Assembly: GCA_027919835.1 (NCBI GenBank)
Contig: JANVFP010000001.1
Coordinates: 744,001 to 808,000, forward strand
Direction: 5' to 3'
DNA from: Lentinula raphanica
Lineage: Eukaryota; Basidiomycota; Agaricomycetes; Agaricales; Omphalotaceae
DNA: 64,000 bases
Shown: positions 1-59,687 of the stretch, piece by piece
How the letters are laid out: the number at the start of each line of letters is the position of its first letter
How positions within the stretch are numbered: position 1 is the stretch's first letter
Notes under the pieces: generated by a model
The model's input: the letters and a program-made list of their open reading frames with translations, nothing else
Databases searched by the model: none
Told to the model about the DNA's origin: nothing
Position numbers and translations under genes: made by a program

Positions 1-176
1 ACCTGTTGTAATGTAGATATGGTGCAGAGCAAGCATGTCCCATCACTGGTTGTACAAATGAAAATATGTATGGCACAGAGATGATCAAATGATAAACTAC
101 TACTGATAATATGATAAGATAGAGATAGGAGATAAGATAAGTGATTAAGGTAGAGAATAGAGAGAAATCTGTGACA
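1..176 (-). repeat. 3' LTR, partial at window edge
   Basis: This segment is the outer 176 bases of the LTR and matches 7185-7360 base for base. It begins (minus strand) with TGTCACAG directly after the polypurine tract. The rest of the LTR and the far target-site duplication lie before the window. Confidence 0.95.
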
Positions 177-3834: not shown

Positions 3835-3911
3835 AACTACTTTATCTGATTTTTTATCAGTGCTGATATTGGGTACACTATTTCCTGACTGTAGATCGCA
3901 GACATTATCCT

Positions 3912-5378
3912 CTACAGTCCCTCTGGAAAATCCGCCTTGTATTGTTGACTTCTAGCCCATCGCGATGGCTTAGAAGGTCCTGCCTGCACTTCACCGACAT
4001 GTGCAGTCGCTCCTTTTGCAGTGAGCTCAGGTAAACTAATATCAGGGGTGCTCGTGGAGTTGACATTGAGAGCATCAGCTGGGGGCGCTGGCTCTTGGCT
4101 GTCTATTTCATCAAATAATTCCATCAACCGCGCTTTGAATGATTTCTTATCACTCGGTGGTGGTTGTTTCCCTTTGTTTCCTTGACCAGATGCAGATGCA
4201 GATGATGAAGAGTTTTTATTGAAATTTGGCCTTTTGCCTTCATTTCCAGGCTTATCCCAGCAATCCACTGTATTGTGAGTCTTCGATTTTGCCTTTAAGC
4301 CCTTTCCGGCGCATATTTGGCAATATCGTTGTTTTTGCTCCTGGGAATTAACCTTTTCTGGGGCTTTGCCTTTACTCTTTTTTGCCGCATCTATCTCCAT
4401 TGCATCTGGTTCATGACTGCCATTGCCTTTAGCATTATTGCCTGTGCCAAATATTACACTTTTAGTCTTTTCTGGATGTAAGGCTTTATATGATAAAAGG
4501 AGAAGTTCCAGATAATCTTCCCATTTAGTAGGAGTCTTTCCGGAAATTTCCAACACAACAAGTGCATTACGCAACTCTTGTGAAATAACGTCACGAAGCT
4601 TGTCGATGTGAATACTATCTTGGTAGTCCACAATACGTGCAAGAGTGCGATATTGTTCAGCATATTTGATAAAGTCCTTACTAGCCAGTGACTTGTTTGT
4701 CCAAAGATGTGTGATTTCATTTTTAGCACCTTCTTTGTTATCACGGCGACCATAAATGGCATTGAGCTCATTGGCAAAGTTGTCCCAAGATCCCAGATCG
4801 TTTCCCAAACGTGTGTCATCAAAGTACTTTCTCATATAGTTTGTGGCAGGAGAACGCAACCTAGTAAGAGCAGTCACAATTCTTTGGTGATCTGTCACAA
4901 TGCCTAAAGATGAGCAGTACAATGCAACTTGATTCATCCAATCTTCTAAGGTCATCTTGTTGTCTGTTCCAGAGAAGGTTGGTGGGTCAGGTACTTTGGG
5001 ACCTCTGAATGGGCCAGCTCCAGCATCAGCAGGAAGCTTATCAAGCTGTGCCTTATAAGCTCGTAAAAGTTCTGCCTGAGTTTCGACAATCTGTCGAAGG
5101 CTACGAACTTCATTTGTTAAGTTCTCTTGATTGGTGAAGGCTGTAGTAAAAGCCTGATTCATCCAATCAGCAAGTCCATTGACATTTCTGTTGATATATC
5201 CAATGGAAATGTTGGTAGTAGCCTCGTGAGCATTGCGAAGGAGTCGTCCAATTTGATTTTTCTGTTCATCAGTTTGAAATCCAATTGCTGCCATATCAAT
5301 TCCTTGAGAGACAGCATCGGACCAAACTTGTCCATCATCGACTAATTCAACAACAGGGGTGAAAGGTGTGTAAGACAT
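3912..5378 (-). CDS. gag: Retrotransposon Gag protein
   Basis: A 488-residue protein directly upstream of pol. Residues about 130-290 (GPKVPDPPTFSGTDNK onward, then WMNQVALYC and ELRNALVVLE) match the capsid-like retrotransposon gag domain. A zinc knuckle follows near residue 350 (CQIC, then a His and Cys in THNTVDCW), in a basic, Ser-rich tail that would bind RNA. The stop at 3912 precedes the pol ATG at 3834, and pol is open in another frame across this gap. Gag would form the particle packaging the element RNA. Confidence 0.93.
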   Translation of the reverse strand: MSYTPFTPVVELVDDGQVWSDAVSQGIDMAAIGFQTDEQKNQIGRLLRNAHEATTNISIGYINRNVNGLADWMNQAFTTAFTNQENLTNEVRSLRQIVETQAELLRAYKAQLDKLPADAGAGPFRGPKVPDPPTFSGTDNKMTLEDWMNQVALYCSSLGIVTDHQRIVTALTRLRSPATNYMRKYFDDTRLGNDLGSWDNFANELNAIYGRRDNKEGAKNEITHLWTNKSLASKDFIKYAEQYRTLARIVDYQDSIHIDKLRDVISQELRNALVVLEISGKTPTKWEDYLELLLLSYKALHPEKTKSVIFGTGNNAKGNGSHEPDAMEIDAAKKSKGKAPEKVNSQEQKQRYCQICAGKGLKAKSKTHNTVDCWDKPGNEGKRPNFNKNSSSSASASGQGNKGKQPPPSDKKSFKARLMELFDEIDSQEPAPPADALNVNSTSTPDISLPELTAKGATAHVGEVQAGPSKPSRWARSQQYKADFPEGL

Positions 5379-9488: not shown

Positions 9489-12400
9489 TTACAATTCATG
9501 CACTGGTTGATACGTACTACGAATCAGTTCCAACTGTTTGTTTCCCTGAGTCCGCATACCGACAGTTTCATGCACTGTAGCCAGGTCTTTGCCTTCAATC
9601 CAGACAGTCCCGACATCCGTATCGATGATTTCGTCGAATTGTATACCTTTCCTGTGCTTGGGTCTGCGTATGAGCTTGACCACTTGAACCAACCAGCGTG
9701 AAGGTCGCGTGGAATCCAAGCGCATCATATAGTTGACTCGGCGACATAACATCCCGGTGTGTTCTCCTGAGCAGATGATGTAGAGGCCTCTGGCAATCGC
9801 GGGGTTGAAAGGTACAGAATATGATCGAGGGTTTTGAAGGATAGTCCAGGGGTCGAGTTCCACAATATTGCTGCTATCGGGGCTCCTTCGCCGATTCCCT
9901 ACGTTAGAATACACTCTTGTTACACCGTTGACAGTTTGTATGAAAATCCGTTGATCTTGCTTCGGGTCGTCCGTAGTTGCTACCAACAGTTCCAGGTTAC
10001 CCTGAACTGACTTTACGATGCGCGGATCCAGGATCCAATGTTGCAAAGAAGGATCAGGAGAAGAAGGATCCCAGGCCGGGTCTGTGCCTGGACTGGGCGG
10101 GTTGAAAGAACAGGGCGTTGTCGCACGAGTCGGTCCTGCGTCCGTGGAGCCAGTTGCTAGTTCACTTTCCTCCAGTACTTTTCGCCTCTTCCGATCATGC
10201 TGCTCTTCAGGAGAGTAAGCGGGGATATAGCCAGATTTCAGACGCCAGTAACTTCCCCATTTCGTATACAAGCCAGCCTCGTCAGAATCATTGTCGTCAT
10301 GAAGAAACCGATCATTATCCACGCGCCGGAGTAAGTGGTAGTCGACCCAGGCAAATGAATTATTCATTCCCTGTGTTTCGTAACGGATTTGGACGGAGAG
10401 CCCGCTGACGGTGTCGCCATCTAATTTTGCATCTACGACTATGGCTCGATAACCCTTCTTGGAATATTTGATGGGATACACTTCCACGTTCTTCAAGGGA
10501 AATTGAGGGGTGGAGGGTTCGATCAAAGGGGCCTGCGTTGGTGTGCTGAGAGGTGTTTTGGGTGATGAGATAGCACGTCGTGAACGGCGGCTGATTGTTC
10601 GACCTTTGTAAGTGTATTTGGGTGAAATTCAAGAATTTGCTTCTGGAAGTCATTGAGTTATCAGTACGATGATTGAGAAGTGAGACGGACCTCATTGTGA
10701 CCCTCCTGTAACAGCACCTCGACTCTACCAGGACAAACACTGATCACTAGACCTTCATTTCCTGCCAGCTCTATATCCTCCGTTTTAGCCAATGACCCGA
10801 ACTCATTCGTTTCGTGGTGGAAGCGAAGCCTTGGACGGACGCCAGTAAGAAGTTTGACAATATCGCCCGGAAAGAATACTTTTTCAAGATGGACTTTTGA
10901 CATGGTATGGAGTGAGTTGACCGTGATATTCGCCACCTGCAGAGGGATGCTGATCTCACAATCTGAAGGACCAACATAGTGAATCACGCCTTTGGTACAG
11001 CCTTCGGGAAGTTCGAATGTATATCGTCCTCCTGGTGTACACCAAACACCATCGAGATCAGTGAAACGAACGTCCTCCCCGATGTGGAATTCCCAGGATG
11101 ATGGCGGAGGCATCCGTAGGAGAGATTGTTGAACGGCATAATGCTTAGACTCTAGAAAATAGTAGCGATTGTCGGCTGGAATCTCCGATGCAAGCTCCAT
11201 ATCTGCGAGCTTTATTCGTACGAGAACAAGGCCGTTCTGCCACTGTTGACCTAGACATATATAGCGTTTGTGTGTCGCCTCGGAATGTGAGCATGAATGG
11301 GGCGTTTCGCAATGTTTAGCACAATCCATTCGCGTGGGGAAGCAGTAATTTTGATCGATATACACTCCAGCCTTGCGAGAGAGAACCGCTGGGCGTTCCG
11401 TCGGCTCACGCTTTCGTTTGCCAAGGGAGGCTTTCCCACTAGAAAAATCGGGAACCAGTTCCCAGTCGATACGAGGAGGAAATAGGACCAAACGTTCGAC
11501 ATCAGAGTTGATTTCATCGAATTCGTCTGCAATGACAAGTCCAACGTCATTCTTATAAAGACCGCTTTTGCATTTGATCCAACTACGAGGGGGATATCGA
11601 TCAAGATGGGACGGTTCCCGTAGAATGCGTTGAATGCCCACAGGATCGTCAATGGAATTATGGATGGGTAGAACTAGATCTGTGCGAGCTGATGCTGTAG
11701 ATATACGGTGGGGTAACTCTTGCACTGGAAATGCGAATCGGGGGACTTTTGAGTACAAGAAGCCAGGTATCGTGAGGAGGTATGCTGCAAGAACAGTGTT
11801 CTGAGGGAGCATGCTTCGCGCTTGGAGATATATACCTCCAGGTAAAGCAGAGGGAAATGCCGCTCGTAGAATCAGAGGGTCAATAACTCGGTGCTGAATA
11901 TCTGTGCAAATGCGATCGACGATTTTTTGTTCGAACTGGGGCTGAAGGTTTCTGCATGAGTTTCGGATTTAATGGCTTAACCAAATGATCGCACCTGGCA
12001 GCGAACGTAAAAAACTTGAACCCCGGTGCCACCAACTCTTCGGCTCCCATATATTTTTTGATCCAATGCTTCAATAAGCGTTGGTCATTGGTCAGCTCAA
12101 CCTCATCTTCCATTTCCCAATCTTGCTCTACCTCTGAGCCCGCTATATCAGCCGTGATACCGGTATTCATGCCATGGGATGCTTCCATATCACTTGAAGA
12201 CATTACATGGGTCTGACGCGTTACTGTACCCGCAGGCGGAGTTGATCCTCCACGTCGTAGTTTGGTTGTAGTCATCTTTGATACAGCCGGCGGAGGTACA
12301 GATGCTGAGCGTCGTCTAGGTTTAATCCTAGGTGGAAGAGGATCATGGTGTGCCGATGATACTGGAATAACGGTTGGAAATACACGACCACTACGCGCGT

Positions 12401-17863: not shown

Positions 17864-20050
17864 CTAAGCAGTTTTCAATTCTACGATGCGAATTCTCATG
17901 GTAAAGATCCCCTCGTGTTTAACGCTCGTTCCAATGGTCAGTACCGGACTGGGTGGGTTGAAAGAACAGGACGTTGTCGCAAGAGTCGGTCCTGCGTCCG
18001 TGGAACCAGTTGCAAGGGAAATTGAGCGGTGGAGGAATCGATCAAAGGGAGCCTGCGTTGGTGTGCTGAGAGGTGTTTTGGGTGATGAGATAGCACGTCG
18101 TGAACGGCGGCTGATCGTTCTACCTTTGTGTGTGTATTTGGGTGAGATTCAAAAATTTGCTTCTAGAAGCCATTGAGTTATCAGTACGATGATTGAGAAG
18201 TGAAACGGACCTCATTGTGACCCTCCTGTAACAGCACCTCAACCCCACCAGAACAAACACTGATCACTAGACCTTCATTTCGTGCCAGCTCTATATCCTC
18301 CGTTTCCGCCGTTACCCCGTGCTCATTCGTTTCGCGGTGCAAGCGAAGCCTTGTTCGGTCGCCAAGGGGAAGTTGGACAATATCGCCCGGAAAAAATATT
18401 TTTACAAGATGCACTTTCAACATCGTATGGAGTGGGTTGACCGTAATATTCACCACCTGCAGAGGGATGCTGATCTCACAATCTGAAGGACCAACATGGT
18501 GAATTACGCCTTTGGTACAGCCTTCGGGAAGTTCGAATGTATATCGTCCTCCTGGTGTACACCAAACGCCGTCGAGATCAGTGAAACGAACGTCCTCCCC
18601 GATCTGGAAGTCCCAGGATGATAGCGGAGGCATCCGTAGGAGAGATTGTTGAACGGCATAATGCTTAGACTCTAGAAAATAGTAGCGAATGTCGGCTGGA
18701 ATCTCCGATGCAAGCTCCATATCTGCGAGCTTTATTCGTACGAAAACAAGGCCGTTCTGCCACTGTTGACCTAGACATATATAGCGTTTGTGTGTCGCCT
18801 CGGAATGTGAGCATGAATGGGGAGTTTCACAATGTTCAGCACAATCCATTCGGGTGGGGAAGCAGTAATTTTGATCGATATACACTCCGCCCTTCCGAGA
18901 GAGAACCGCTGGGCGTTCCGTCGGCTCACGCTTTCGTTTGCCAAGGGAGGCTTTCCCACTGGAAAAATCGGGAACCAAGTCCCAGTCGATTCGAGGAGGA
19001 AATAGGACCAAACTTTCGACATCAGAGCTGATTTCATCGAATTCGTCTGCAACAAAAAGTCCAACCTCATCCTTGTGAAGACCGCGTTTGTGTTTGATCC
19101 ATCTCCGAGGAGAATATCGACCAAGATGGGACGATTCCCGTAGAATGCATTGAATGCCCACAGGATCATCCATGGGACCAAGGATGGGTAAAGTTAGATC
19201 TGTGCGAGCTTCTGCTGTAGATATATGGTGTTTCGAAGTCTGCAATGGAAATGCGAATCGGAGGGCTTTCGAGTACAAGAGGCCGGTCATCGTAAGGAGG
19301 TATGCCGCAAGAACAGTGTTCAGAGGGAGCATGCTTCGTGCTTGAAGATATATATCTCCAGGTAAAACATAGGGAAATCCCGCTTGTAGAATCAGAGGGT
19401 CAATAACTAGGTGCTAAAGATTTCTGCATTAGTTCGAGTTCAATGGATTAAGCAAAGGATCGCACCTGGCAGCGAACGTGAAAGAACTTAAAACCCGGTG
19501 CCACCAACTCTTCAGCACCCATATATTTTCTGATCCTCTGCTTCAATAAGCGTTTCTTTAACTCAACCTCATCTTCCATTCGCCAATCTTGCTCTTCCTC
19601 TGAGCCCGCTACATCAACAGCGATACCGGTACTATGAGATACTTCCATATCACTGGAAGACATCACATTATTCATACGCGTTACTGTACCCAAAGGCGGA
19701 GTTGATCCTGAGCGTCGTAGTTCGGTTGTAGTCATCTTTGATACAGCCGGCGGAGGTACAGATGCTGAACGTCGTCTAGGTTTAATCCTCGATGGAAGAG
19801 GCTCATAGCGTGCCGATGATACTGGAATGACGGTTGGGAATACACGACTGCTGCGCGCATTGACGATCTCCCGAAGATGAATCGCTTCCTCCTCCCGTTG
19901 GATCACCCGATCGAAACCATGAGACGAATTGACGAAGGGGAGGGCATATTCGGATGGAGCGTCCGCGTTAGCGCATTTTTTGGCTTCATCCCCATCTGAA
20001 CTGTCCCACTCGTCGAATTCTTCTTCTTCCTGCGCAAGATCGTGGCTCAT
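17864..20050 (-). pseudogene. SPT5-like protein, copy 2, damaged and shortened
   Basis: Closely related to copy 1 (9489-12599), with the same acidic start (MSHDLAQEEEE) and KOW exon (18181-19332). Three lesions are visible against copy 1. Just after the first intron, 48 bases are missing and the next codon reads TAG where copy 1 has CAG (near 19415). In the last exon one base is inserted near 18050. About 340 bases are then missing near 18014; this second change restores the frame, giving ATGSTDAGPT. Similarity ends near 17940 and the frame runs on to a stop at 17864, losing some 200 C-terminal residues. A shorter product from the internal ATG at 19332 cannot be excluded. Confidence 0.72.
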
Positions 20051-43975: not shown

Positions 43976-44272
43976 GTTTATAGCGAGCAACAAGAAAGAA
44001 CGTTTGCGCCTAAACAAGCGAACTTGGTCAAGGTGGAAAAGATGGGAATAAGGATGGAGGTTGCATGTCGAACGGTGCAATTTAAGGCAGTGCCAAGCGC
44101 AAGATTGATCTCCGACTCTTTAGAGGAGGGTTTTGTGGTGTTCAAATGTCGAAAAATTCTGCAATCTTGCCCTTCTAGGAAATTTTATATTGCATTGTGT
44201 AATCAGCTGAGTAATGCAGTATTACCTTTTGATGGCACATGATGCCTTTCACTTTCCACGGTATATTCTAGA
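43976..44272. other. Intergenic, nothing recognised
   Basis: Upstream region of the surface-protein gene, ending at the left inverted repeat of the MITE-like element. No gene seen. Confidence 0.5.
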
Positions 44273-44283
44273 CTGCTAGTAAG

Positions 44284-44299
44284 GAACACAGGGACCCCC
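44284..44299 (+). repeat. Left core site of copy A (attL-like)
   Basis: GAACACAGGGACCCCC. To its left is host MITE sequence (...ctagtaag); to its right the element begins ctaagcattccc. The same 16 bases recur at 50503, 53452 and 59672. Confidence 0.8.
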
Positions 44300-44549
44300 T
44301 AAGCATTCCCACGCAGTGGGTCTCCAAAGGAGGGCGACCAGGCGCGTGCCGAATGCCGCTGGTCACCAGTTCGGGCGACTTCGATAAGGGTACGCAGGGA
44401 TCATAGTTGGCGAGGTCTCCTATAGCGTACCTCACTCTCCCTTTGTACTGTACTTGCCTCTCTCTCTAAGTACCATTTATCAATCACATTCTCTGCATTT
44501 TCAACTCATTTTCTTACGGCGATACGTTTGGCAACTGTATATATATCTG

Positions 44550-47500
44550 ATGGCCGACACTTCAATTGATCCTGCCATCCTTTCCGACAACATCGAATCA
44601 ACGGCGAACCAACAATTCAACACACCCACGCCACGCGTTCCTTCGACTCAACCATCTTCTCTCACCTTCCAAAACCTCGCACCTAGTGTTGGTCCAGATG
44701 GACATCTCTTAGAGTCTCGGTTGGAAATGTATAACCGCCTGTATGTCTTCTCACTGCTCTGGATATTCAACATGTTCCTCATTGGCTGGTAGAAAAATTT
44801 GCAAGAAGAAGCAACCTTTGTTCGAGCTCTGTAACTCTCTTGGCATGAAGGTGACGAAGAAGGCAAATTTGGAGAAACTTCGGGACGCATTGCTGGAGTT
44901 CTGGTGCGTGATCATGCTTTCCTCTATCCACATGAATACTCACAGAAGCTCGCAGGTACCCCTGTGCACAACACCAGCCTTCTACATCACTTCCACCACC
45001 TTGTTCCACTCCTGCATCACCCTTGGCAGACACCGAAGGCGAACGCGATAACGATGGCGATGACGACGACGAAGTGGGCTTAATCCAACAATTTGATCAA
45101 GATGGCTTGGGCGATGACATCCTTGCATACGATGAGGACGATATGAACGATGGAGGTGCAGAGGACTGGGATTTTGAAGATGACGGACAATATGAGGCCT
45201 ATCAGCAGAAGCTGCGTGTTGACGCTACCCGTGTTGCTGAGGGTAACCAACGCGCTGGTGGTAGGAAAACTCAGGCTGCGTTGGTGAAACTCATTGAGGT
45301 TTGCCCAATATCTTTTTCTATCTTCGTATCTCATGTGTTCGATAGGAATATATCGATAAGGCTCTCTTTGCAAAAACCATTCGGGATAGAATCATCGACG
45401 AAACCTTCCTGCTCCAGTTCATTGAACATAACGCGATACGTCCAAAACGCTCACGTCGTGGAGCCGAAATCACAGGCACTTACCTTGGCGCAGTGAGTTG
45501 TATACCTTGTGTAATACATTGGTTATACTCATGCTCTCACAGTCTCAGCAGAAAAAGCTTTTCTTTGCAGCCCTACGAATTCGCAAGGAGCAGGAAGCTG
45601 TCGACCCAACGCTACGTACCAAACGACCCGCCACCTCTGTTACCGTCTGGGACCTGCTCAAATCGCGCATGGACATGGCTTTACATCGTGCTCGGAGCGG
45701 TTTAGTTCCTGGTGAAGATGCCCCAGACATCATTGCGAACACGTTTCTCTCCTCCATAACAGAGGAACAAATTCGTCATATCGGGCTCAACGGCTTTCTT
45801 ATGCATCGCGAAGGTAAGTCTTTTGATCCTCTGTACAGCCCATGCTAATCATGTCACAGTGCGGTCCACAGTGCTGGGCCATCTCTCGTGGACCTCGCAG
45901 CATGCGAGTGGCAACCGCGGTGACGATATTCGTGCTCTCAAACTTGCGGAACTTCAGCCCCACACCCTCCTTCATCCAAACAAGGAAACGGCAATCTTCG
46001 CAATGCTCGGACTTCAAGGCGAAGAGAAGGCGGGTAAACGAGGTTTACGCACAGTTATCAATCCAACGTACACGACGTTCATCGCCCACCTCCATCCTGA
46101 GCAATGTCCGCTCGGCAGTTTTGCGCTGTACTTCCATTATCTGTTCGACTACAACGAAGGTCTCACCGAGAAGATGGACATCGACTGGTCCGTGAACAAG
46201 AGCTGGAGAGGCGTTCGAGTCCTCCATGGCCCAAAATCTCCCACTACGCCGTTCTCGGAACAGAGCATGTACAATTTGTATGTGCGGGCATTCAAGAAGG
46301 CTGAATTCAATTCGCCGGTCAAAGTACATCTTCCTCGACACTGTCTCGGCTACCGTCAAGAAACCATGGGGTTTGTCTTTGTTGCACTATGGGAATACTA
46401 CGCTGACTGGATATATAGTGTTGACTCTAATCAAACCTCGAAGCTCGGGTGGGCGCGCGGCTCAACGTATCACGATGTTTACGCTCCCGCGATTCCGGTC
46501 ACTGTACGATTCGTGTCATTGTCCCAACTCAATGATTCTTGCTCATTTAATGCAGGCTGTACTAGGTGGTGCTGGCTATAAGGCACACGAAACCTATGAC
46601 CCCCCTTGGCGACATGTTCACATTCCAGAGCAGTTCTTGCTTCTGGTGTGTCCTATGGCTGAGGCTATTCATGATTCAGTGGTCGGTAAGTGGTCAAAGC
46701 AAAATCTTGTGTACAAACTCTCATCTTGGACACAAGGTAAGCAAAACTTAAGTGGGGCTGCAAATTTCTGGAAGCTGGTTATGGACCTTCGGCCGTATGT
46801 CTTCCAGGTATGGTTTCCCTCTTCAAGTTTCATCTTCATCTCTCAATGAGTCTTCGCTCTAGTGTGGTGCCGCCATTTACCAGCATGTACCCGATTCCAA
46901 CATCTTCAAATTACCGGCATTTATGGATAGCGACGTTACAAATTGGATGAAGACTGAGTTCCCGACCCAACTGAGTCTGATACAGGCGAAAGCTGGAAGT
47001 CCCGTTGACCTTCAGCGAATTCAAAATGAGTCACTTCGCCTCGCACTCGAAGAGGTGCGCGTAATCATGACTGGAATGCGAATCGAAATGCAGAAGCTCT
47101 CGGCTCAACTCGACCGCCGAACACAACTTCTTTCTCCTCATGCTTACAAGCCGGTCAAAAATTCTCGAACGACCATCTCCTATCGTTTGCCACTGGACTC
47201 CTCCTCTGCACTTCTTCCTGCCGCCGATATCATTCCTGCGACTGCGCTCATTTCCACCACTAACATAGTGCCACCTGCCGAATGCAATGCTGATGACATG
47301 GGCATGTACCAGCTGGAAGATGAGTCGTATCGAGCTTTTGTATCACCGTCTCCAAAATCGCGTGGAATACCCCGACCTCGAACACAGGTGGACCTCAAGC
47401 TCCCGCCAGTCAATGTATATACTAAGCCAGGTGAGTGAGATCGAGACTCGTTTCTCTCCTTATGAAGCTCATGTTTCATTCTCACAGGCGGACCAATTTT

Positions 47501-48148
47501 CCTCCTTCCCCCATATGTCGGCCAGAAGTCTATCACCTGGGACGATGTTTTTAAACAAGTCCAGCAGCCAGAACAACTCTGGGATCTCTACAAGCCAACA
47601 AAGACACTGGACCAGTGGGAAAGTCTCAGCGAACTCTGGCACTGCTGGTCTGTTGGTGAACCTGAGACAGACAGTACTGGTGTCCAAACTGGAGTTCGGC
47701 CACCTTTGCGATTAGTCGAACAGTACTTTCAGTACAAATGGCGGCCAGGTAAACCCGCGGTACGTTGATTCATTGTCGTCGAACACAAGTTTTCTCAAGC
47801 CGACCTCAGGGAAAAATTTGGGAACGGTTTCGTGAGATCCCAGAATATATTGACGCACAAGTAGCCTCTCGAAACGTGTCACCAGCAATTGTCCTTGAAG
47901 AATTAGAGGCCCGTCGTAAGCAGAAGAAATTGATCACCATAGATGGAGTAGAGCGGTCACTCGAAACTACAATGGGACTCAACCAACTGAAGACAGAGCT
48001 GGCTGCGGAGCGAAAGAAGATGGCTATGAAGGAAACTATAGTGTACCCAACAGAGGCAATAGAAGGAGAGACAAGGGAAGGTAAGAAGCGTGCAGCTGCA
48101 GTTGCACCAAGACGCCCATTGAAGAAACACAAACTGGATGTAGCATAG
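44550..48148 (+). CDS. Crypton-type tyrosine recombinase (Ndc10-like core, GCR1_C DNA-binding domain), copy A
   Basis: A gene of about a dozen exons. The start at 44550 (MADTSIDPAIL) follows a TATA-like tatatatat. Exon 2 encodes a SAP-like segment (PLFELCNSLGMKVTKKANL). An acidic linker follows (DNDGDDDDEVG, YDEDDMNDGG). The recombinase core spans about 45500-46800: the first catalytic Arg context NRGDDIRALKL (45913), CPLGSFALYFHYLF as in Ndc10, the HxxR motif HLPR (46327-46338), and the nucleophile Tyr in YHDVYAP (46480) after the exon join MG/VDSNQTSKLGW. The C-terminal part (LWDLYKPTKTLDQW, LRLVEQYFQYKWRPG) resembles GCR1_C, which binds DNA in Cryptons. It ends KKHKLDVA in a basic tail. 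It would catalyse cutting and joining at the core sites. Confidence 0.88.
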
Positions 48149-48341
48149 TGAAATCCATGTCCCAATCTGTTTTGAATGATAATTGTGTTCTCTCACCCGT
48201 TGTTTGTCTGAGCTCAAGGAAAGCAGGTCATTGACAAACCTCTTCGTTCATTGCTTTACAAATTTGCATCCGGAGGTGCCTATAGGAGCCATTTCTTGTT
48301 TACTCTCGAACCAGCATCACCGCCTACCAAAAGCTTGACTC

Positions 48342-50211
48342 ATGGGCATCCCAGGTATATGGCAGGTGTGTTACTGAAATTATATTAAGTTTTCACATTG
48401 ATCTCATTTACATAGCTTGTTCGGAAAACTGGAGTGCAAAAGAATCTCGCAGACGTTGCACTTTTGGAAGGATATGTCCTCAATTATAACCGTACACGAA
48501 TCTACCATATTGGAATCGATTCTAGGTAAGTCTTTCCTTAGATCAATAACCATTCACTTACCAAGCAAAATTAAGCATCCTTCTCGATTCAATTCAAGCC
48601 AATACGAACGCCCATCCACAACTACACTCCCCTGTCAATAAGGGGCTCGCACAGCTCTTCAAACGGTTTTGTCAGTTCCATAGGGCTGGTGTACAGTGCA
48701 CGTTAGTTTTCGATGGACCTCAACGAGCATTGCACAAGCGAGGACGGGCAGTCATTACTGACCCTGCACACGAGCCTTTACTCTATAGGCAGGCACGAAG
48801 CCTGTCACGACTATTTGGATTCAATGTTCACCAGGTGTGTATTCCAAGACTAGTCACTACTTCATTACAATAGTATTGAGCCACGCTATGATAGGCAGCT
48901 GGTGACGCTGAGGCTGAACTTGCTGAAATGAATCGGCGGGGAATTGTTGATGCCGTTCTAACCACTGATAGTGATTCGTTTGCCTTCGGGACCCCACGGA
49001 TTATGACTATCGCAACGTAAGTATACAAGAATCATTCCCTCAGGATCGAACTCATGTGTAGCCTGCAGAGAGGCCTGTACAGAGACTCGATTGATGGTCA
49101 ATATCTACGAGATGTCCAAAATCCAAACTGAGCTTGGGCTCACTCGCGATAGCTTCATCTTCTTTGCATTTCTTGTTGGAAATGATTATGACAATGGAGT
49201 GCCAGGCATCGGGATACAGACTGTATCAGCACTTCTACAAGCTGGCCTTGGCCCGTCCCTAGTCACAAGCTATGCCCGCTGGTCACCGTCTGCGAATCTA
49301 CTCACTACCTACTTCCAGGAACTCAAACGAGTCCTCGTCACTGAGCTCCGGGAGAATCGCAGGCAAAAACTCCGTTCATGCCTTCCCGCAGCTGCCGAAG
49401 CACTCAACCGATCCCAGTTTCCATCACCTATCAGTATGATGGCATATTTAGACCCGCCGACTACGTGGTCAAATGATTCTAATGGAATCGAAGGCTGGAA
49501 TCAACATCACCCCAGCATAAGAGGTATAACGGAGTTCTGTCGCAATCAGATTGGGTGGTCCAATGAGCAGAAGCTTCTGAAGAGATTTTCCAAGAGCCTT
49601 TGGCCAGCATTAATACTATTCATGCTTAAATCAGTATGAATTCACTAGCCTATCAAACACGCTCAAGGCTGACATCAAATTTCAATAGAAGGCAGCCTCA
49701 TATGACTCCTCTACACGGGAAGTACAGCTAACTGCTACATCCCCTGAAGATAGTGGTGGCACACCCAGGGTCATCATACAGAGCTTCAATCCAACGCATC
49801 TACAAGCACGAAAATCTCATCAAAAGATACAGGTCACATTCAATATTGCTGGACTCGTCCTCGAAACGGGCATGAATGCGACATCTCAGTTGGAGATCAG
49901 GGTTGATGTTCCAATCCCAATCATGGCAACTATCATGCAGCAGCGCAGAATCACCGCATTTGGGACGACTCTTCCGCCGCTTCCTCCAGCCAGTAACAGA
50001 CAGGATGAAGGTAGCACGTCAATGGTATGACTACTCTTATCAAGCTTCATCTTTGATTGACCTCATCGCTACATAGAAACAACGCAAGGTCGACTCTGAT
50101 TCTGATAGCATTGAGATCATGAGTAGCAGTGATGAATCTATCGTGTTCTCAGATGTACAGCGCAGGCAGGATTTTATTGAAATTATGAGCAGTGATGGCG
50201 AGGGACAGTAG
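48342..50211 (+). CDS. XPG/Rad2-family structure-specific nuclease, GEN1/YEN1-like, copy A
   Basis: The start at 48342 gives MGIPGIWQ, the classic XPG N-terminus, after which an intron (48366-48415) is removed. The next exons read IGIDS/SILLDSIQ (first metal-binding Asp) and TLVFDGPQRALHKRG (second Asp, near 48712). The XPG-I domain is AAGDAEAELAEMNRRGIVDAVLTTDSDSF, given here in parts: GDAEAELAEMN and VLTTDSDSFAFG, with the Glu and Asp ligands present. FLVGNDYDNGVPGIG (near 49174) has the last Asp and starts the helix-hairpin-helix. A long C-terminal extension ends in acidic SSDESIVF and EIMSSDGEGQ. GEN1/YEN1 members cut Holliday junctions and flaps. It lies 193 bp after the recombinase gene on the same strand, inside the element. 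Confidence 0.87.
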
Positions 50212-50502
50212 CAGTAGGTATGGGTTATAACTTATTCCAGTAACTTTGTAACTTTCGATTGTACCTGTATATTTCCTGCGATGAAAGTCTGTTAGCCGCC
50301 CATATTTCTGTTGACCAGCGTGAGCGAAAGATGCGTTGACCAGCTCGACGACGAGCGATCCGTCGGCTGGTCGAATCGGTTGACCGCGCGCGAGGGCGAA
50401 ACCGGAGCCCACCTAGCGGAGTTTGAATTTTGGGCGCTTAACCGAGCGACCCATGTCGAACTCTGGCCTGATCGAGAGACCTGTCACCGGGAATCCCGTA
50501 TA

Positions 50503-50518
50503 GAACACAGGGACCCCC
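50503..50518 (+). repeat. Right core site of copy A (attR-like)
   Basis: GAACACAGGGACCCCC, preceded by the element tail (...cccgtata) and followed by the rest of the MITE arm (atgctcggaatt). Confidence 0.8.
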
Positions 50519-51301
50519 ATGCTCGGAATTTTCAAAGTCCGAAGGGCTGCCGGACGGATTCCGAGCCCATTAGTCATCGATATAGCCACGTGAAATGTCA
50601 AAGCAGGCATTTTTCGTCCGCTGAGAGCTGCTGAGAATCAACTCCTTCGTCATTCGAGTGTCGATTAGAGCATTTTTGTGATTCAGATAGCTTCAATTGT
50701 ACATGACCTTCCATCTACAAGAGAAATCATTGACTCATAATGTGTTTTTCTCTTGGAGGCCTTCTGCACTGTGCAAAGTTGACTTACATGAGCTTTTACA
50801 TCTTCTCAGGAATGAATACTAATGAGAAATAACAGTTTAAGAGCAGTACCATGCTCCGGCTCTTTTATGAGGCTCAGAAGATGTGCTCATTGCTCAGAGA
50901 GAGGCTACAGCTTGCTACAGAGGTCAGAGATTTATATATCTTATCTTATCTGAAAGCGGACTTTGAAAATTCCGAGCATGAGGGTCCCACTGTTCCTTAC
51001 CACCAGGCTGTTATTCAACGAACGCGTTTACTCTTCGTTGAACTATCAGATTGGCTAGCGAGGCTAGGTATATTCTTCCAGATCTGCTGCCAAAAGCCTG
51101 AACATTGACGTTGATTAAATTCTTGAGCTTGAACATTGAAGCCCGGTTGAAGCCCTTGAAGCTGGCTGGCTGGGGAAGGTTGGGAAGACCAGGAATGATT
51201 GCAAATTGAAACCACTGAGGTGTAGTGGGAGCACGCACTTCCGCAAGGATAATTCAACTTCATATCATTTGTTCAACATCTCCTCTGTAATTTATTATCT
51301 T

Positions 51302-52222: not shown

Positions 52223-53110
52223 TCAAAACACAACCAGGCAGGATCCCAATAATCCTAGCAGCAAACTCGCTCCCAGGGCTGCAAAAGACCGATGATCAAC
52301 CAGAACCTTGGTAGCACTGCTTGAAGCTATGGTGGTGCTAGATGATCCGGAAGATGTTGATGCGACGGAAGCAGTCACAGTCGACTGTATGTTTTGCGTT
52401 GAACTTGTTTGTGACGATGAGCCTGGGGCTGTCGCCGTGACCACAGACGCTGAGGATGGTGCGGTCAGCGAAGAAGATGTTTGTGTGGATTGAGCAAGAG
52501 TCGATATTTCCGGGGAAGTGAGAGCAGATGATGTTTGGGTTTGCATATCAGAAAACGAAGAAACAGAACCGCCTTCGGAGTGAGCAAGATTGAATTGAAG
52601 ACTTGAAAAGGAAATGAAAATTCTGCACCTGATCCCGTGTTCGTAGTTTGAACTACAGAAACACTCGCTGTAGAAAGAGGCAGCCCAACGGAACCAGAGA
52701 ACCCAGACGCAGTCTGAACGGGGACAGAAATCCCACCGGCATCGCATAAAGCGGCGAATTCTGAACGGTTGATAAGTACGATCAAGATAGGTTTCAACCA
52801 TTAGTGAAAGACGAACGATTCAAAATATCCTGCGCCTGCGAGATGACTGTCTGATTCGGCTTGACGGCTTCAAGGCAGTCGACGCAGGTAGTCAATGCGT
52901 TCCCATTAGAGGAAGTGCAAACACATTCTACTGTCAGACAGTCCTATGGAAACAAGACGGTTAGACACGAATACCGGTGGCTGGGTTGCCATACTCACAC
53001 TAATGGTGGTCTCGATAGCATTGCAAGTGTCGTTGCAGCTCGTTGGAATCGTAGCGAGAGTTGCTAGATTGTTTACCATCGGATTAATTGCTGAGAGAAC
53101 GACGGAGGCC
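52223..53110 (-). pseudogene. Ser/Thr-rich GPI-type surface protein, 5'-truncated copy A
   Basis: Identical over its length to the gene at 61393-62420 but lacking exon 1. At 53110/53111 the sequence changes from coding exon 2 (ASVVLSAINP) to the tail of the Crypton-like element. The remaining exons give TSCNDTCNAIETTI, DCLTVECVCTS, TTCVDCLEAVKP, the Ser/Thr-rich stretch and the hydrophobic end LGASLLLGLLGSCLVVF. Without its signal peptide exon the copy should not produce a surface protein. Confidence 0.8.
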
Positions 53111-53451
53111 GCAGGCAGGATTTTATTGAAATTATGAGCAGTGATGGCGAGGGACAGTAGCAGTAGGTATGGGTTATAACTTATTCCAGTAACTTTGTAA
53201 CTTTCGATTGTACCTGTATATTTCCTGCGATGAAAGTCTGTTAGCCGCCCATATTTCTGTTGACCAGCGTGAGCGAAAGATGCGTTGACCAGCTCGACGA
53301 CGAGCGATCCGTCGGCTGGTCGAATCGGTTGACCGCGCGCGAGGGCGAAACCGGAGCCCACCTAGCGGAGTTTGAATTTTGGGCGCTTAACCGAGCGACC
53401 CATGTCGAACTCTGGCCTGATCGAGAGACCTGTCACCGGGAATCCCGTATA
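53111..53451 (+). mobile_element. Crypton-like element tail fragment in front of copy B
   Basis: These 341 bases match 50162-50502 exactly: the last codons of the nuclease gene and the element's right end with its GACCAG motifs. They are followed by the core (53452-53467) and the head of copy B. This makes a tail-core-head junction, as in an element circle or head-to-tail array. The left junction to the surface-protein gene is abrupt, with at most one shared base. Confidence 0.88.
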
Positions 53452-53717
53452 GAACACAGGGACCCCCTAAGCATTCCCACGCAGTGGGTCTCCAAAGGAG
53501 GGCGACCAGGCGCGTGCCGAATGCCGCTGGTCACCAGTTCGGGCGACTTCGATAAGGGTACGCAGGGATCATAGTTGGCGAGGTCTCCTATAGCGTACCT
53601 CACTCTCCCTTTGTACTGTACTTGCCTCTCTCTCTAAGTACCATTTATCAATCACATTCTCTGCATTTTCAACTCATTTTCTTACGGCGATACGTTTGGC
53701 AACTGTATATATATCTG

Positions 53718-56700
53718 ATGGCCGACACTTCAATTGATCCTGCCATCCTTTCCGACAACATCGAATCAACGGCGAACCAACAATTCAACACACCCACGCC
53801 ACGCGTTCCTTCGACTCAACCATCTTCTCTCACCTTCCAAAACCTCGCACCTAGTGTTGGTCCAGATGGACATCTCTTAGAGTCTCGGTTGGAAATGTAT
53901 AACCGCCTGTATGTCTTCTCACTGCTCTGGATATTCAACATGTTCCTCATTGGCTGGTAGAAAAATTTGCAAGAAGAAGCAACCTTTGTTCGAGCTCTGT
54001 AACTCTCTTGGCATGAAGGTGACGAAGAAGGCAAATTTGGAGAAACTTCGGGACGCATTGCTGGAGTTCTGGTGCGTGATCATGCTTTCCTCTATCCACA
54101 TGAATACTCACAGAAGCTCGCAGGTACCCCTGTGCACAACACCAGCCTTCTACATCACTTCCACCACCTTGTTCCACTCCTGCATCACCCTTGGCAGACA
54201 CCGAAGGCGAACGCGATAACGATGGCGATGACGACGACGAAGTGGGCTTAATCCAACAATTTGATCAAGATGGCTTGGGCGATGACATCCTTGCATACGA
54301 TGAGGACGATATGAACGATGGAGGTGCAGAGGACTGGGATTTTGAAGATGACGGACAATATGAGGCCTATCAGCAGAAGCTGCGTGTTGACGCTACCCGT
54401 GTTGCTGAGGGTAACCAACGCGCTGGTGGTAGGAAAACTCAGGCTGCGTTGGTGAAACTCATTGAGGTTTGCCCAATATCTTTTTCTATCTTCGTATCTC
54501 ATGTGTTCGATAGGAATATATCGATAAGGCTCTCTTTGCAAAAACCATTCGGGATAGAATCATCGACGAAACCTTCCTGCTCCAGTTCATTGAACATAAC
54601 GCGATACGTCCAAAACGCTCACGTCGTGGAGCCGAAATCACAGGCACTTACCTTGGCGCAGTGAGTTGTATACCTTGTGTAATACATTGGTTATACTCAT
54701 GCTCTCACAGTCTCAGCAGAAAAAGCTTTTCTTTGCAGCCCTACGAATTCGCAAGGAGCAGGAAGCTGTCGACCCAACGCTACGTACCAAACGACCCGCC
54801 ACCTCTGTTACCGTCTGGGACCTGCTCAAATCGCGCATGGACATGGCTTTACATCGTGCTCGGAGCGGTTTAGTTCCTGGTGAAGATGCCCCAGACATCA
54901 TTGCGAACACGTTTCTCTCCTCCATAACAGAGGAACAAATTCGTCATATCGGGCTCAACGGCTTTCTTATGCATCGCGAAGGTAAGTCTTTTGATCCTCT
55001 GTACAGCCCATGCTAATCATGTCACAGTGCGGTCCACAGTGCTGGGCCATCTCTCGTGGACCTCGCAGCATGCGAGTGGCAACCGCGGTGACGATATTCG
55101 TGCTCTCAAACTTGCGGAACTTCAGCCCCACACCCTCCTTCATCCAAACAAGGAAACGGCAATCTTCGCAATGCTCGGACTTCAAGGCGAAGAGAAGGCG
55201 GGTAAACGAGGTTTACGCACAGTTATCAATCCAACGTACACGACGTTCATCGCCCACCTCCATCCTGAGCAATGTCCGCTCGGCAGTTTTGCGCTGTACT
55301 TCCATTATCTGTTCGACTACAACGAAGGTCTCACCGAGAAGATGGACATCGACTGGTCCGTGAACAAGAGCTGGAGAGGCGTTCGAGTCCTCCATGGCCC
55401 AAAATCTCCCACTACGCCGTTCTCGGAACAGAGCATGTACAATTTGTATGTGCGGGCATTCAAGAAGGCTGAATTCAATTCGCCGGTCAAAGTACATCTT
55501 CCTCGACACTGTCTCGGCTACCGTCAAGAAACCATGGGGTTTGTCTTTGTTGCACTATGGGAATACTACGCTGACTGGATATATAGTGTTGACTCTAATC
55601 AAACCTCGAAGCTCGGGTGGGCGCGCGGCTCAACGTATCACGATGTTTACGCTCCCGCGATTCCGGTCACTGTACGATTCGTGTCATTGTCCCAACTCAA
55701 TGATTCTTGCTCATTTAATGCAGGCTGTACTAGGTGGTGCTGGCTATAAGGCACACGAAACCTATGACCCCCCTTGGCGACATGTTCACATTCCAGAGCA
55801 GTTCTTGCTTCTGGTGTGTCCTATGGCTGAGGCTATTCATGATTCAGTGGTCGGTAAGTGGTCAAAGCAAAATCTTGTGTACAAACTCTCATCTTGGACA
55901 CAAGGTAAGCAAAACTTAAGTGGGGCTGCAAATTTCTGGAAGCTGGTTATGGACCTTCGGCCGTATGTCTTCCAGGTATGGTTTCCCTCTTCAAGTTTCA
56001 TCTTCATCTCTCAATGAGTCTTCGCTCTAGTGTGGTGCCGCCATTTACCAGCATGTACCCGATTCCAACATCTTCAAATTACCGGCATTTATGGATAGCG
56101 ACGTTACAAATTGGATGAAGACTGAGTTCCCGACCCAACTGAGTCTGATACAGGCGAAAGCTGGAAGTCCCGTTGACCTTCAGCGAATTCAAAATGAGTC
56201 ACTTCGCCTCGCACTCGAAGAGGTGCGCGTAATCATGACTGGAATGCGAATCGAAATGCAGAAGCTCTCGGCTCAACTCGACCGCCGAACACAACTTCTT
56301 TCTCCTCATGCTTACAAGCCGGTCAAAAATTCTCGAACGACCATCTCCTATCGTTTGCCACTGGACTCCTCCTCTGCACTTCTTCCTGCCGCCGATATCA
56401 TTCCTGCGACTGCGCTCATTTCCACCACTAACATAGTGCCACCTGCCGAATGCAATGCTGATGACATGGGCATGTACCAGCTGGAAGATGAGTCGTATCG
56501 AGCTTTTGTATCACCGTCTCCAAAATCGCGTGGAATACCCCGACCTCGAACACAGGTGGACCTCAAGCTCCCGCCAGTCAATGTATATACTAAGCCAGGT
56601 GAGTGAGATCGAGACTCGTTTCTCTCCTTATGAAGCTCATGTTTCATTCTCACAGGCGGACCAATTTTCCTCCTTCCCCCATATGTCGGCCAGAAGTCTA

Positions 56701-57316
56701 TCACCTGGGACGATGTTTTTAAACAAGTCCAGCAGCCAGAACAACTCTGGGATCTCTACAAGCCAACAAAGACACTGGACCAGTGGGAAAGTCTCAGCGA
56801 ACTCTGGCACTGCTGGTCTGTTGGTGAACCTGAGACAGACAGTACTGGTGTCCAAACTGGAGTTCGGCCACCTTTGCGATTAGTCGAACAGTACTTTCAG
56901 TACAAATGGCGGCCAGGTAAACCCGCGGTACGTTGATTCATTGTCGTCGAACACAAGTTTTCTCAAGCCGACCTCAGGGAAAAATTTGGGAACGGTTTCG
57001 TGAGATCCCAGAATATATTGACGCACAAGTAGCCTCTCGAAACGTGTCACCAGCAATTGTCCTTGAAGAATTAGAGGCCCGTCGTAAGCAGAAGAAATTG
57101 ATCACCATAGATGGAGTAGAGCGGTCACTCGAAACTACAATGGGACTCAACCAACTGAAGACAGAGCTGGCTGCGGAGCGAAAGAAGATGGCTATGAAGG
57201 AAACTATAGTGTACCCAACAGAGGCAATAGAAGGAGAGACAAGGGAAGGTAAGAAGCGTGCAGCTGCAGTTGCACCAAGACGCCCATTGAAGAAACACAA
57301 ACTGGATGTAGCATAG
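53718..57316 (+). CDS. Crypton-type tyrosine recombinase, copy B
   Basis: No difference from copy A (44550-48148) was seen, including the NRG, HLPR and Tyr motifs (about 55081, 55495 and 55648), the introns and the GCR1_C-like end. Two identical full-length copies mean both could be expressed, or that the duplication is very young. Confidence 0.88.
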
Positions 57317-57509
57317 TGAAATCCATGTCCCAATCTGTTTTGAATGATAATTGTGTTCTCTCACCCGTTGTTTGTCTGAGCTCAAGGAAAGCAGGTCATT
57401 GACAAACCTCTTCGTTCATTGCTTTACAAATTTGCATCCGGAGGTGCCTATAGGAGCCATTTCTTGTTTACTCTCGAACCAGCATCACCGCCTACCAAAA
57501 GCTTGACTC

Positions 57510-59380
57510 ATGGGCATCCCAGGTATATGGCAGGTGTGTTACTGAAAATTATATTAAGTTTTCACATTGATCTCATTTACATAGCTTGTTCGGAAAACTG
57601 GAGTGCAAAAGAATCTCGCAGACGTTGCACTTTTGGAAGGATATGTCCTCAATTATAACCGTACACGAATCTACCATATTGGAATCGATTCTAGGTAAGT
57701 CTTTCCTTAGATCAATAACCATTCACTTACCAAGCAAAATTAAGCATCCTTCTCGATTCAATTCAAGCCAATACGAACGCCCATCCACAACTACACTCCC
57801 CTGTCAATAAGGGGCTCGCACAGCTCTTCAAACGGTTTTGTCAGTTCCATAGGGCTGGTGTACAGTGCACGTTAGTTTTCGATGGACCTCAACGAGCATT
57901 GCACAAGCGAGGACGGGCAGTCATTACTGACCCTGCACACGAGCCTTTACTCTATAGGCAGGCACGAAGCCTGTCACGACTATTTGGATTCAATGTTCAC
58001 CAGGTGTGTATTCCAAGACTAGTCACTACTTCATTACAATAGTATTGAGCCACGCTATGATAGGCAGCTGGTGACGCTGAGGCTGAACTTGCTGAAATGA
58101 ATCGGCGGGGAATTGTTGATGCTGTTCTAACCACTGATAGTGATTCGTTTGCCTTCGGGACCCCACGGATTATGACTATCGCAACGTAAGTATACAAGAA
58201 TCATTCCCTCAGGATCGAACTCATGTGTAGCCTGCAGAGAGGCCTGTACAGAGACTCGATTGATGGTCAATATCTACGAGATGTCCAAAATCCAAACTGA
58301 GCTTGGGCTCACTCGCGATAGCTTCATCTTCTTTGCATTTCTTGTTGGAAATGATTATGACAATGGAGTGCCAGGCATCGGGATACAGACTGTATCAGCA
58401 CTTCTACAAGCTGGCCTTGGCCCGTCCCTAGTCACAAGCTATGCCCGCTGGTCACCGTCTGCGAATCTACTCACTACCTACTTCCAGGAACTCAAACGAG
58501 TCCTCGTCACTGAGCTCCGGGAGAATCGCAGGCAAAAACTCCGTTCATGCCTTCCCGCAGCTGCCGAAGCACTCAACCGATCCCAGTTTCCATCACCTAT
58601 CAGTATGATGGCATATTTAGACCCGCCGACTACGTGGTCAAATGATTCTAATGGAATCGAAGGCTGGAATCAACATCACCCCAGCATAAGAGGTATAACG
58701 GAGTTCTGTCGCAATCAGATTGGGTGGTCCAATGAGCAGAAGCTTCTGAAGAGATTTTCCAAGAGCCTTTGGCCAGCATTAATACTATTCATGCTTAAAT
58801 CAGTATGAATTCACTAGCCTATCAAACACGCTCAAGGCTGACATCAAATTTCAATAGAAGGCAGCCTCATATGACTCCTCTACACGGGAAGTACAGCTAA
58901 CTGCTACATCCCCTGAAGATAGTGGTGGCACACCCAGGGTCATCATACAGAGCTTCAATCCAACGCATCTACAAGCACGAAAATCTCATCAAAAGATACA
59001 GGTCACATTCAATATTGCTGGACTCGTCCTCGAAACGGGCATGAATGCGACATCTCAGTTGGAGATCAGGGTTGATGTTCCAATCCCAATCATGGCAACT
59101 ATCATGCAGCAGCGCAGAATCACCGCATTTGGGACGACTCTTCCGCCGCTTCCTCCAGCCAGTAACAGACAGGATGAAGGTAGCACGTCAATGGTATGAC
59201 TACTCTTATCAAGCTTCATCTTTGATTGACCTCATCGCTACATAGAAACAACGCAAGGTCGACTCTGATTCTGATAGCATTGAGATCATGAGTAGCAGTG
59301 ATGAATCTATCGTGTTCTCAGATGTACAGCGCAGGCAGGATTTTATTGAAATTATGAGCAGTGATGGCGAGGGACAGTAG
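57510..59380 (+). CDS. XPG/Rad2-family nuclease, GEN1/YEN1-like, copy B
   Basis: As copy A (48342-50211), starting MGIPGIWQ. One extra A lies in the first intron and one codon differs silently (GCC to GCT, Ala, at 58123). All metal-binding Asp/Glu positions are kept. Confidence 0.87.
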
Positions 59381-59687
59381 CAGTAGGTATGGGTTATAAC
59401 TTATTCCAGTAACTTTGTAACTTTCGATTGTACCTGTATATTTCCTGCGATGAAAGTCTGTTAGCCGCCCATATTTCTGTTGACCAGCGTGAGCGAAAGA
59501 TGCGTTGACCAGCTCGACGACGAGCGATCCGTCGGCTGGTCGAATCGGTTGACCGCGCGCGAGGGCGAAACCGGAGCCCACCTAGCGGAGTTTGAATTTT
59601 GGGCGCTTAACCGAGCGACCCATGTCGAACTCTGGCCTGATCGAGAGACCTGTCACCGGGAATCCCGTATAGAACACAGGGACCCCC

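What the first reader, a model, noticed from the sequence alone, without database searches (positions are those of the whole stretch)
44284..50518. Crypton-like transposon that carries an XPG/GEN1-like nuclease
Seen: two intact same-strand genes 193 bp apart within one pair of 16-bp core repeats. One is an Ndc10/GCR1_C-type tyrosine recombinase with NRG, HLPR and Tyr motifs. The other is an XPG-family nuclease starting MGIPGIWQ with all acidic ligands. Known: described fungal Cryptons generally carry only the recombinase. XPG/GEN1 enzymes resolve branched DNA, just the kind of intermediate a tyrosine recombinase makes. Inference: the nuclease may resolve or bias recombination intermediates, help replicative copying, or protect the element.
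Basis: partly seen in the sequence, partly recalled or inferred. Interest (0 to 1): 0.9.

Follow-up and report, generated by a model that had tools for sequence, protein, structure and literature searches.

The report
Mushroom transposon with recombinase and nuclease
A jumping gene of the mushroom Lentinula raphanica carries, besides the enzyme that moves it, a gene for a nuclease related to DNA-junction cutters, and the same pairing appears in other mushrooms and in a second kind of jumping gene, which hints that the two enzymes work together.

Summary
Confirmed, with a correction to the ends. The window (Lentinula raphanica) holds two near-identical 6.2-kb elements. Each has an Ndc10-type tyrosine recombinase (YR, 1006 aa) and, 193 bp downstream on the same strand, a GEN1/XPG-type nuclease (516 aa; all seven metal-ligand positions acidic; best structural match GEN1). 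Mobility is supported by five uninterrupted copies of the target repeat and a third intact copy elsewhere. Across sites the shared core is only GAAC(A); the 16-bp repeat arises because this target resembles the element's left end.

The pairing recurs: 22 of 120 listed YR homologues are gene models with an XPG stretch after the YR (seven genera). In this genome 12 of 13 element-type XPG loci adjoin a recombinase gene, eight of them in a different element (XPG plus a second, probable YR type, at seven of the eight with a TET/JBP-like dioxygenase). The XPG tree rejects simple co-inheritance with the Ndc10-type YR, so the nuclease seems to have passed between recombinase elements. Two relatives share the right end but lack the nuclease, so it may be dispensable.

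Inferred, untested: the nuclease resolves YR recombination junctions. The held paper library showed no description of it.

The parts
44284..50518 (+). Element copy 1 (left end at 44284; the right core 50503-50518 belongs to the target)
44284..44299 (+). Left terminus GAACACAGGGACCCCC; in the other copies seen it is part of the element
   Evidence: same first 15 bases in 5 of 5 left ends seen
44550..48148 (+). Tyrosine recombinase gene, Ndc10/CryptonF type, 12 exons, 1006 aa
48342..50211 (+). GEN1/XPG-like nuclease gene, 7 exons, 516 aa
50503..50518 (+). Right core, target copy; only GAAC(A) is shared with the right junctions of other copies
44260..44268 (+). GGTATATTC, left copy of the 9-bp duplication that flanks the interrupted target repeat
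   Evidence: read; like duplications by eye at L005, L006, L008
44269..44299 (+). Left part of the interrupted target repeat (short mobile repeat)
50519..51066 (+). Right part of the interrupted target repeat
51067..51075 (+). GGTATATTC, right copy of the 9-bp duplication
   Evidence: read
53110..53451 (+). 342-bp copy of the element's tail (same as 50161-50502) joined directly to copy 2
53452..59687 (+). Element copy 2, both genes giving identical proteins (YR 53718-57316, XPG 57510-59380)

Best explanation
It is a CryptonF-like tyrosine-recombinase DNA transposon with an added GEN1-type nuclease. Shown: insertion into a mobile repeat at a GAAC(A) core, several genomic copies, an intact recombinase of Ndc10/Cre fold, an adjacent nuclease with a complete acidic active site, the same gene order in other mushrooms, and the same nuclease family beside a second kind of probable recombinase. 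Inferred: the recombinase cuts the element out as a circle and joins it to a site alike over only 4-5 bp; strand exchange between such poorly matched sites tends to stall or reverse at a four-way (Holliday) junction, and the GEN1-like nuclease cuts that junction, or the flaps that follow, so that the reaction is completed.
Against: C40 and C30 relatives have the YR and the right end but no XPG, though neither is shown to be active. 98 of 120 listed YR homologues show no XPG stretch; a separate XPG gene cannot be seen there. Of 17 fusion rows checked, 6 have all seven ligands acidic, 6 have gaps only, and 5 have a non-acidic residue (gene-model errors or decay). The nearest non-Lentinula YR relative, P0018, has only a partial XPG stretch, nearer to GEN1-like proteins. 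Between window and C20 copies XPG has 5 silent and 3 replacement changes, YR 6 and 10: too few to show selection. The nuclease's C-terminal third is poorly modelled and Pfam GEN1_C is not matched. Some bacterial integrases cope with mismatched cores unaided (recalled).
Confidence: 0.5

Rival explanations
1. The nuclease raises copy number rather than completing strand exchange: it cuts forks, flaps or repair intermediates at the donor site so that homologous repair restores the donor copy while the excised circle inserts elsewhere.
For: Same anatomy; GEN1 relatives FEN1, XPG and EXO1 act on flaps and gaps, and their folds match nearly as well as GEN1.
Against: Few copies in this genome: three intact and one degraded with XPG. 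No footprint of donor repair was looked for.
Confidence: 0.2
2. The nuclease is cargo that serves the element's survival or the host (DNA repair, or harm to rival elements or invading DNA), not the recombination step.
For: Two relatives lack it; it occurs with two kinds of recombinase element.
Against: No other foreign gene recurs in its place: 22 of 26 long C-terminal extensions are XPG. A junction-type nuclease beside two kinds of recombinase points to recombination.
Confidence: 0.18
3. Passive capture: a GEN1-like gene was picked up and rides along without function.
For: Exchange between element types; decayed copies (C20:42.7-66.9k) and decayed fusion models exist.
Against: All seven ligands acidic in both window copies and in 6 of 17 fusion rows, 6 more with gaps only; 6 of 8 second-type rows all acidic, 2 with one gap. 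Same gene order in seven genera.
Confidence: 0.09
4. The fused proteins in other mushrooms do not reflect real adjacency (annotation artefact).
For: They probably are merged neighbouring genes: in the window the two are separate, with a stop between them.
Against: Merging still needs neighbours; 22 of 26 long extensions are XPG. Adjacency is read directly from DNA in the window and on C20.
Confidence: 0.03

Closest known systems
CryptonF transposons (PMC3212892; passages seen)
   Same: Tyrosine recombinase with Ndc10-like fold, GCR1_C-like C-terminal part in relatives, 4-6 bp terminal direct repeats, no terminal inverted repeats of its own
   Different: Carries a GEN1/XPG-like nuclease gene. 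The passages seen name only a C48 peptidase (oomycetes) and a Mariner fusion as extras; the words XPG, flap, resolvase and Holliday do not occur in that paper's main text
GEN1/Yen1 Holliday-junction resolvases (PMC5039027; abstract opening in a listing and passages)
   Same: XPG N and I regions, seven acidic ligand positions, best fold match GEN1 over residues 2-446
   Different: Shorter (516 aa), Pfam GEN1_C not matched, sits in a mobile element beside a recombinase; in the tree apart from the GEN1-like rows (99/99)
TET/JBP-bearing fungal DNA transposons (PMC12730594; passages seen)
   Same: The second element type found here also carries a TET/JBP-like dioxygenase (weak Pfam hits)
   Different: There the transposases are mostly DDD/E, some Helitron; the terms Crypton and tyrosine recombinase do not occur in its main text
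Starships (recalled; listing only)
   Same: Fungal tyrosine-recombinase elements with extra genes
   Different: 6.2 kb with two genes; the Pfam scan shows NDC10_II and weak GCR1_C, no DUF3435

Membership tests
CryptonF transposon | Tyrosine recombinase with Arg, HxxR, Trp/His and Tyr | tested here: met
   R374/R379, H511-x-x-R514, W536, Y546 in at least 90% of 56 sequences (P0014 numbering); fold matches Ndc10, Cre, Flpe
CryptonF transposon | GCR1_C DNA-binding domain | tested here: inconclusive
   Window protein 14 bits against a cut-off of 23; relative P0101 passes at 25.8; several relatives listed with PF12550
CryptonF transposon | Short (4-6 bp) terminal direct repeats, no terminal inverted repeats | tested here: met
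   GAAC(A) shared by five different sites; the inverted repeats belong to the target
CryptonF transposon | Circular intermediate | not testable with these tools
   No reads or PCR
GEN1/Yen1 resolvase | XPG N and I regions with acidic ligands | tested here: met
GEN1/Yen1 resolvase | Chromodomain after the nuclease core | tested here: inconclusive
   GEN1 alignment reaches model residue 446, but residues 364-402 and 438-511 are under pLDDT 50 and Pfam GEN1_C is not matched
GEN1/Yen1 resolvase | Cleaves Holliday junctions | not testable with these tools
   Needs an assay
Starship | DUF3435 captain recombinase | tested here: not met
   Pfam scan at E up to 0.1 gives NDC10_II and weak GCR1_C only

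The most novel reading that the evidence does not exclude
In mushroom-forming fungi a GEN1-type junction nuclease is a recurrent, exchangeable partner of tyrosine-recombinase transposons: at least two kinds of recombinase element have it, one mostly together with a TET/JBP-like dioxygenase. Transposition is then a two-enzyme reaction, in which the recombinase starts strand exchange between sites alike over 4-5 bp and the transposon's own nuclease resolves the junction. This would explain both the loose target choice and the presence of the same nuclease in different elements.
Probability: 0.35. Interest if true: 0.9.

Novelty: new variant of a known kind. Interest (0 to 1): 0.75.

Why it matters
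Tyrosine-recombinase transposons are generally described with the recombinase as the only enzyme of the reaction. A GEN1-like nuclease that recurs beside the recombinase in seven genera, and that seems to have passed between two kinds of recombinase element, suggests a two-enzyme transposition reaction. It makes an open question testable: how Cryptons join sites that share only a few bases. It may also explain part of the 'PIN domain-like' and 'XPG-I' genes annotated in mushroom genomes.

Tried and rejected
Rejected: (a) a 16-bp core as the general recognition site: the other right junctions share 4-5 bp. (b) Terminal inverted repeats of the element (inverted pairs I2 and I3): they belong to the target repeat, whose empty copies have them. 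(c) Starship membership. (d) Simple co-inheritance of YR and XPG: rejected by the AU test. Caveats: the group was named after the tree was seen, second-type rows come from one genome and are exon pieces strung together, several fusion rows have long branches.

Led nowhere: the profile search for more XPG proteins gave 14, of which 13 were already known. PDB sequence searches with the YR alone or as a profile and with the dioxygenase found nothing; with the second-type recombinase one chance-level hit. Profile comparison of the two recombinase types gave no match (four close rows on one side, so no evidence of unrelatedness). Library scans of the second-type recombinase were weak (Phage_integrase E 0.015-0.036, phrog_1 integrase 0.27, NCBIfam none), so it rests on motifs read by eye (LLRVDEL, HSFRRGG, GGW, Tyr; motif meaning recalled).

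Rows left out: of 22 fusion rows, the XPG tree uses 17, omitting P0018, P0105, P0069, P0032, P0078; also out are P0001, P0003-P0006, P0011 and the near-duplicate or housekeeping rows C20 intact copy, C17:380k, C29. The YR tree has 20 fusions, three Lentinula rows and 12 unfused proteins of my choice. The Mantel test omits P0032 and P0078 and treats P0016 and P0004 as a pair because both are listed with a 15593-base longest contig (inferred). The 120 YR homologues are those listed of 132 found. The 13 element-type XPG loci exclude GEN1/FEN1-like loci (C19, C11, C14, C29, C26; C11, C14 and C26 were not read) and a fragment at C2:1577581-1577855 whose surroundings were not read.
Full report
What is in the window. 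The window lies on contig C1 (2,145,657 bases) of a 49-Mb genome. The best database match to its recombinase, P0014, is from Lentinula raphanica and from a contig of the same length. Hand-spliced models give two intact same-strand genes: a tyrosine recombinase of 1006 aa (44550-48148) and an XPG-family nuclease of 516 aa (48342-50211), 193 bp apart. P0014 is 6 aa longer than my model, so some introns may lie slightly otherwise. A second copy lies at 53452-59687. The two units agree over 8829 bp at 99.97% with one mismatch and two gaps (one search shows one more gap at the very edge of the unit) and encode identical proteins.

Ends and mobility. Five stretches elsewhere (C3, C4, C11, C12, C36) hold the target repeat without the element: 31-36 bp match the left flank at 97-100% and 418-568 bp match the right flank at 93-99.5% (junctions). 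The interrupted repeat in the window has its own 9-bp duplication, GGTATATTC, at 44260-44268 and 51067-51075 (read). The element therefore went into a short mobile repeat that was already there. The 15-mer GAACACAGGGACCCC occurs exactly at 13 places: four in the window, five empty repeats, three left ends of other copies (C15, C20 twice) and one at C7 that I could not explain. The five left ends seen begin GAACACAGGGACCCC after unrelated flanks, while four right junctions run from GGGAATCCCRTATA into GAACAGTG, GAACAACT, GAACTTGG or GAACATGA. The general core is thus GAAC or GAACA. Left ends of the C40 and C30 relatives were not found.

Other copies. A third intact copy (C20:949667-955899, 99.3% over 6.2 kb) has both genes. 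A degraded copy (C20:42701-66850), split by about 15 kb, also has both. Relatives at C40 and C30 have the recombinase and the same right end but no nuclease match. More distant recombinase fragments (C3, C27, C46, C25) have no nuclease match in the stretches read. So the nuclease is not found with every recombinase of the family.

Tandem arrangement. Between the window copies lie 2.6 kb of repeated flank and then 342 bp of element tail joined directly to the start of copy 2. The simplest reading is unequal exchange between a chromosome with one element and one with two elements head to tail. A head-to-tail pair is what insertion at an existing core would give; other rearrangements, or an assembly fault, are not excluded.

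Recurrence. Of 120 recombinase homologues listed (132 found), 21 carry an XPG stretch after the recombinase by comparison with the window XPG alone, and 22 with a profile built partly from those same proteins. They are 22 of the 26 that have more than 120 residues there. Genera: Mycena, Favolaschia, Psilocybe, Gymnopilus, Galerina, Arthromyces, Rhodocollybia. They are probably merged neighbouring genes; what matters is that the neighbours are in the same order. Of 17 such rows checked, 6 have all seven ligands acidic, 6 have gaps only, and 5 have at least one non-acidic residue. For the other 98 homologues a separate XPG neighbour can be neither seen nor excluded.

A second element type. The other element-type XPG genes of this genome lie at nine loci (L023-L031). 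At eight of the nine a probable tyrosine recombinase of another kind lies about 1-4.5 kb away in divergent orientation. A TET/JBP-like dioxygenase lies between them at seven of these eight (not at C15), and a partial one stays at the ninth locus, C17:380k. The dioxygenase rests on conserved HxD, H and R positions and weak Pfam hits (Tet_JBP best E 1.8e-4; the first member is below the cut-off). The recombinase rests on motifs. A palindrome of two 14-bp arms around 6 bp lies downstream of XPG at eight of the nine loci, and its surroundings match only ten places in the genome, eight of them these loci. Of ten strong recombinase loci of this kind, eight have XPG. Counting both types, 12 of 13 element-type XPG loci adjoin a recombinase gene; copies share descent, so these are two kinds of association rather than twelve independent ones.

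Phylogeny. The XPGs of both element types separate from the GEN1-like rows sampled (99/99), and the window's XPG is sister to the second-type XPGs (100/100) rather than to the XPGs fused with its own recombinase family. Holding all Ndc10-linked XPGs together is rejected (AU p 0.00014). YR and XPG distances still correlate (Mantel r 0.84, p 0.0001, 22 rows; r 0.46, p 0.0086, 14 lineages), but descent of the hosts alone could give that. The nearest non-Lentinula recombinase relative in the tree, P0018 of Rhodocollybia, has a partial XPG stretch whose best match is a GEN1-like protein. The best reading is a nuclease that travels with recombinase elements and has at least once passed from one kind to another; the direction is unknown.

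Mechanism. Shown: the pairing, its recurrence, intact active sites, insertion at a 4-5 bp core. Inferred: the nuclease resolves four-way junctions or flaps left by strand exchange between poorly matched sites. Against: nuclease-free relatives, and bacterial integrases that manage mismatched cores unaided (recalled). I put it at about one in two.

Known or new. A full-text search for Crypton with XPG found 0 papers. Searches combining tyrosine recombinase, flap endonuclease, Crypton, endonuclease, Ndc10, XPG, CryptonF, Agaricomycetes, Holliday junction and resolvase showed nothing on point in the titles and abstract openings listed (only the top rows of longer lists were shown, and subscription papers and most preprints are not held). 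Of PMC3212892, PMC12730594 and PMC5039027 I saw passages only. The element works like, and mostly matches, a CryptonF; the nuclease makes it a new variant.

Noticed in passing
L023-L031 (C38, C17, C4, C39, C24, C15): Second element type: XPG nuclease, divergent TET/JBP-like dioxygenase (at seven of the eight loci that keep the recombinase) and a second kind of probable tyrosine recombinase, with a 14+6+14 bp palindrome downstream of XPG.
   Followed up: partly
window 44284-44299 and 44269-51066: The element's left end and the end of the mobile repeat it sits in share 16 bp, far more than the 4-5 bp core at other sites; whether this is target mimicry, capture or chance is open.
   Followed up: partly
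window 53110-53467: 342 bp of element tail joined head to tail to copy 2, and the 2.6-kb flank repeated: sign of a tandem element pair and unequal exchange, or an assembly fault.
   Followed up: partly
C-termini of XPG stretches, e.g. P0037, P0063, P0109, P0115; L028: Several element XPGs end in a V-I-D-L-T or I-E-L-T-like motif that resembles a SUMO-interaction motif (recalled); the window protein has SIEIMSSSDES and FIEIMSSDGE.
   Followed up: no
L020 and L021 (C27:1-9900, C46:214000-223900): Two 9-kb stretches 97% identical, each with a decayed Ndc10-type recombinase fragment.
   Followed up: no
L007 (C7:532790-532804): A GAACACAGGGACCCC 15-mer in other surroundings, neither an element end nor an empty target repeat.
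   Followed up: no
window 10494-11908 and 18013-19428: Repeat pair 91% identical over 1.4 kb, carrying similar 383-aa reading frames.
   Followed up: no
window 145-5378: Long reading frames that look like the polyprotein and gag of an LTR retrotransposon (by eye).
   Followed up: no
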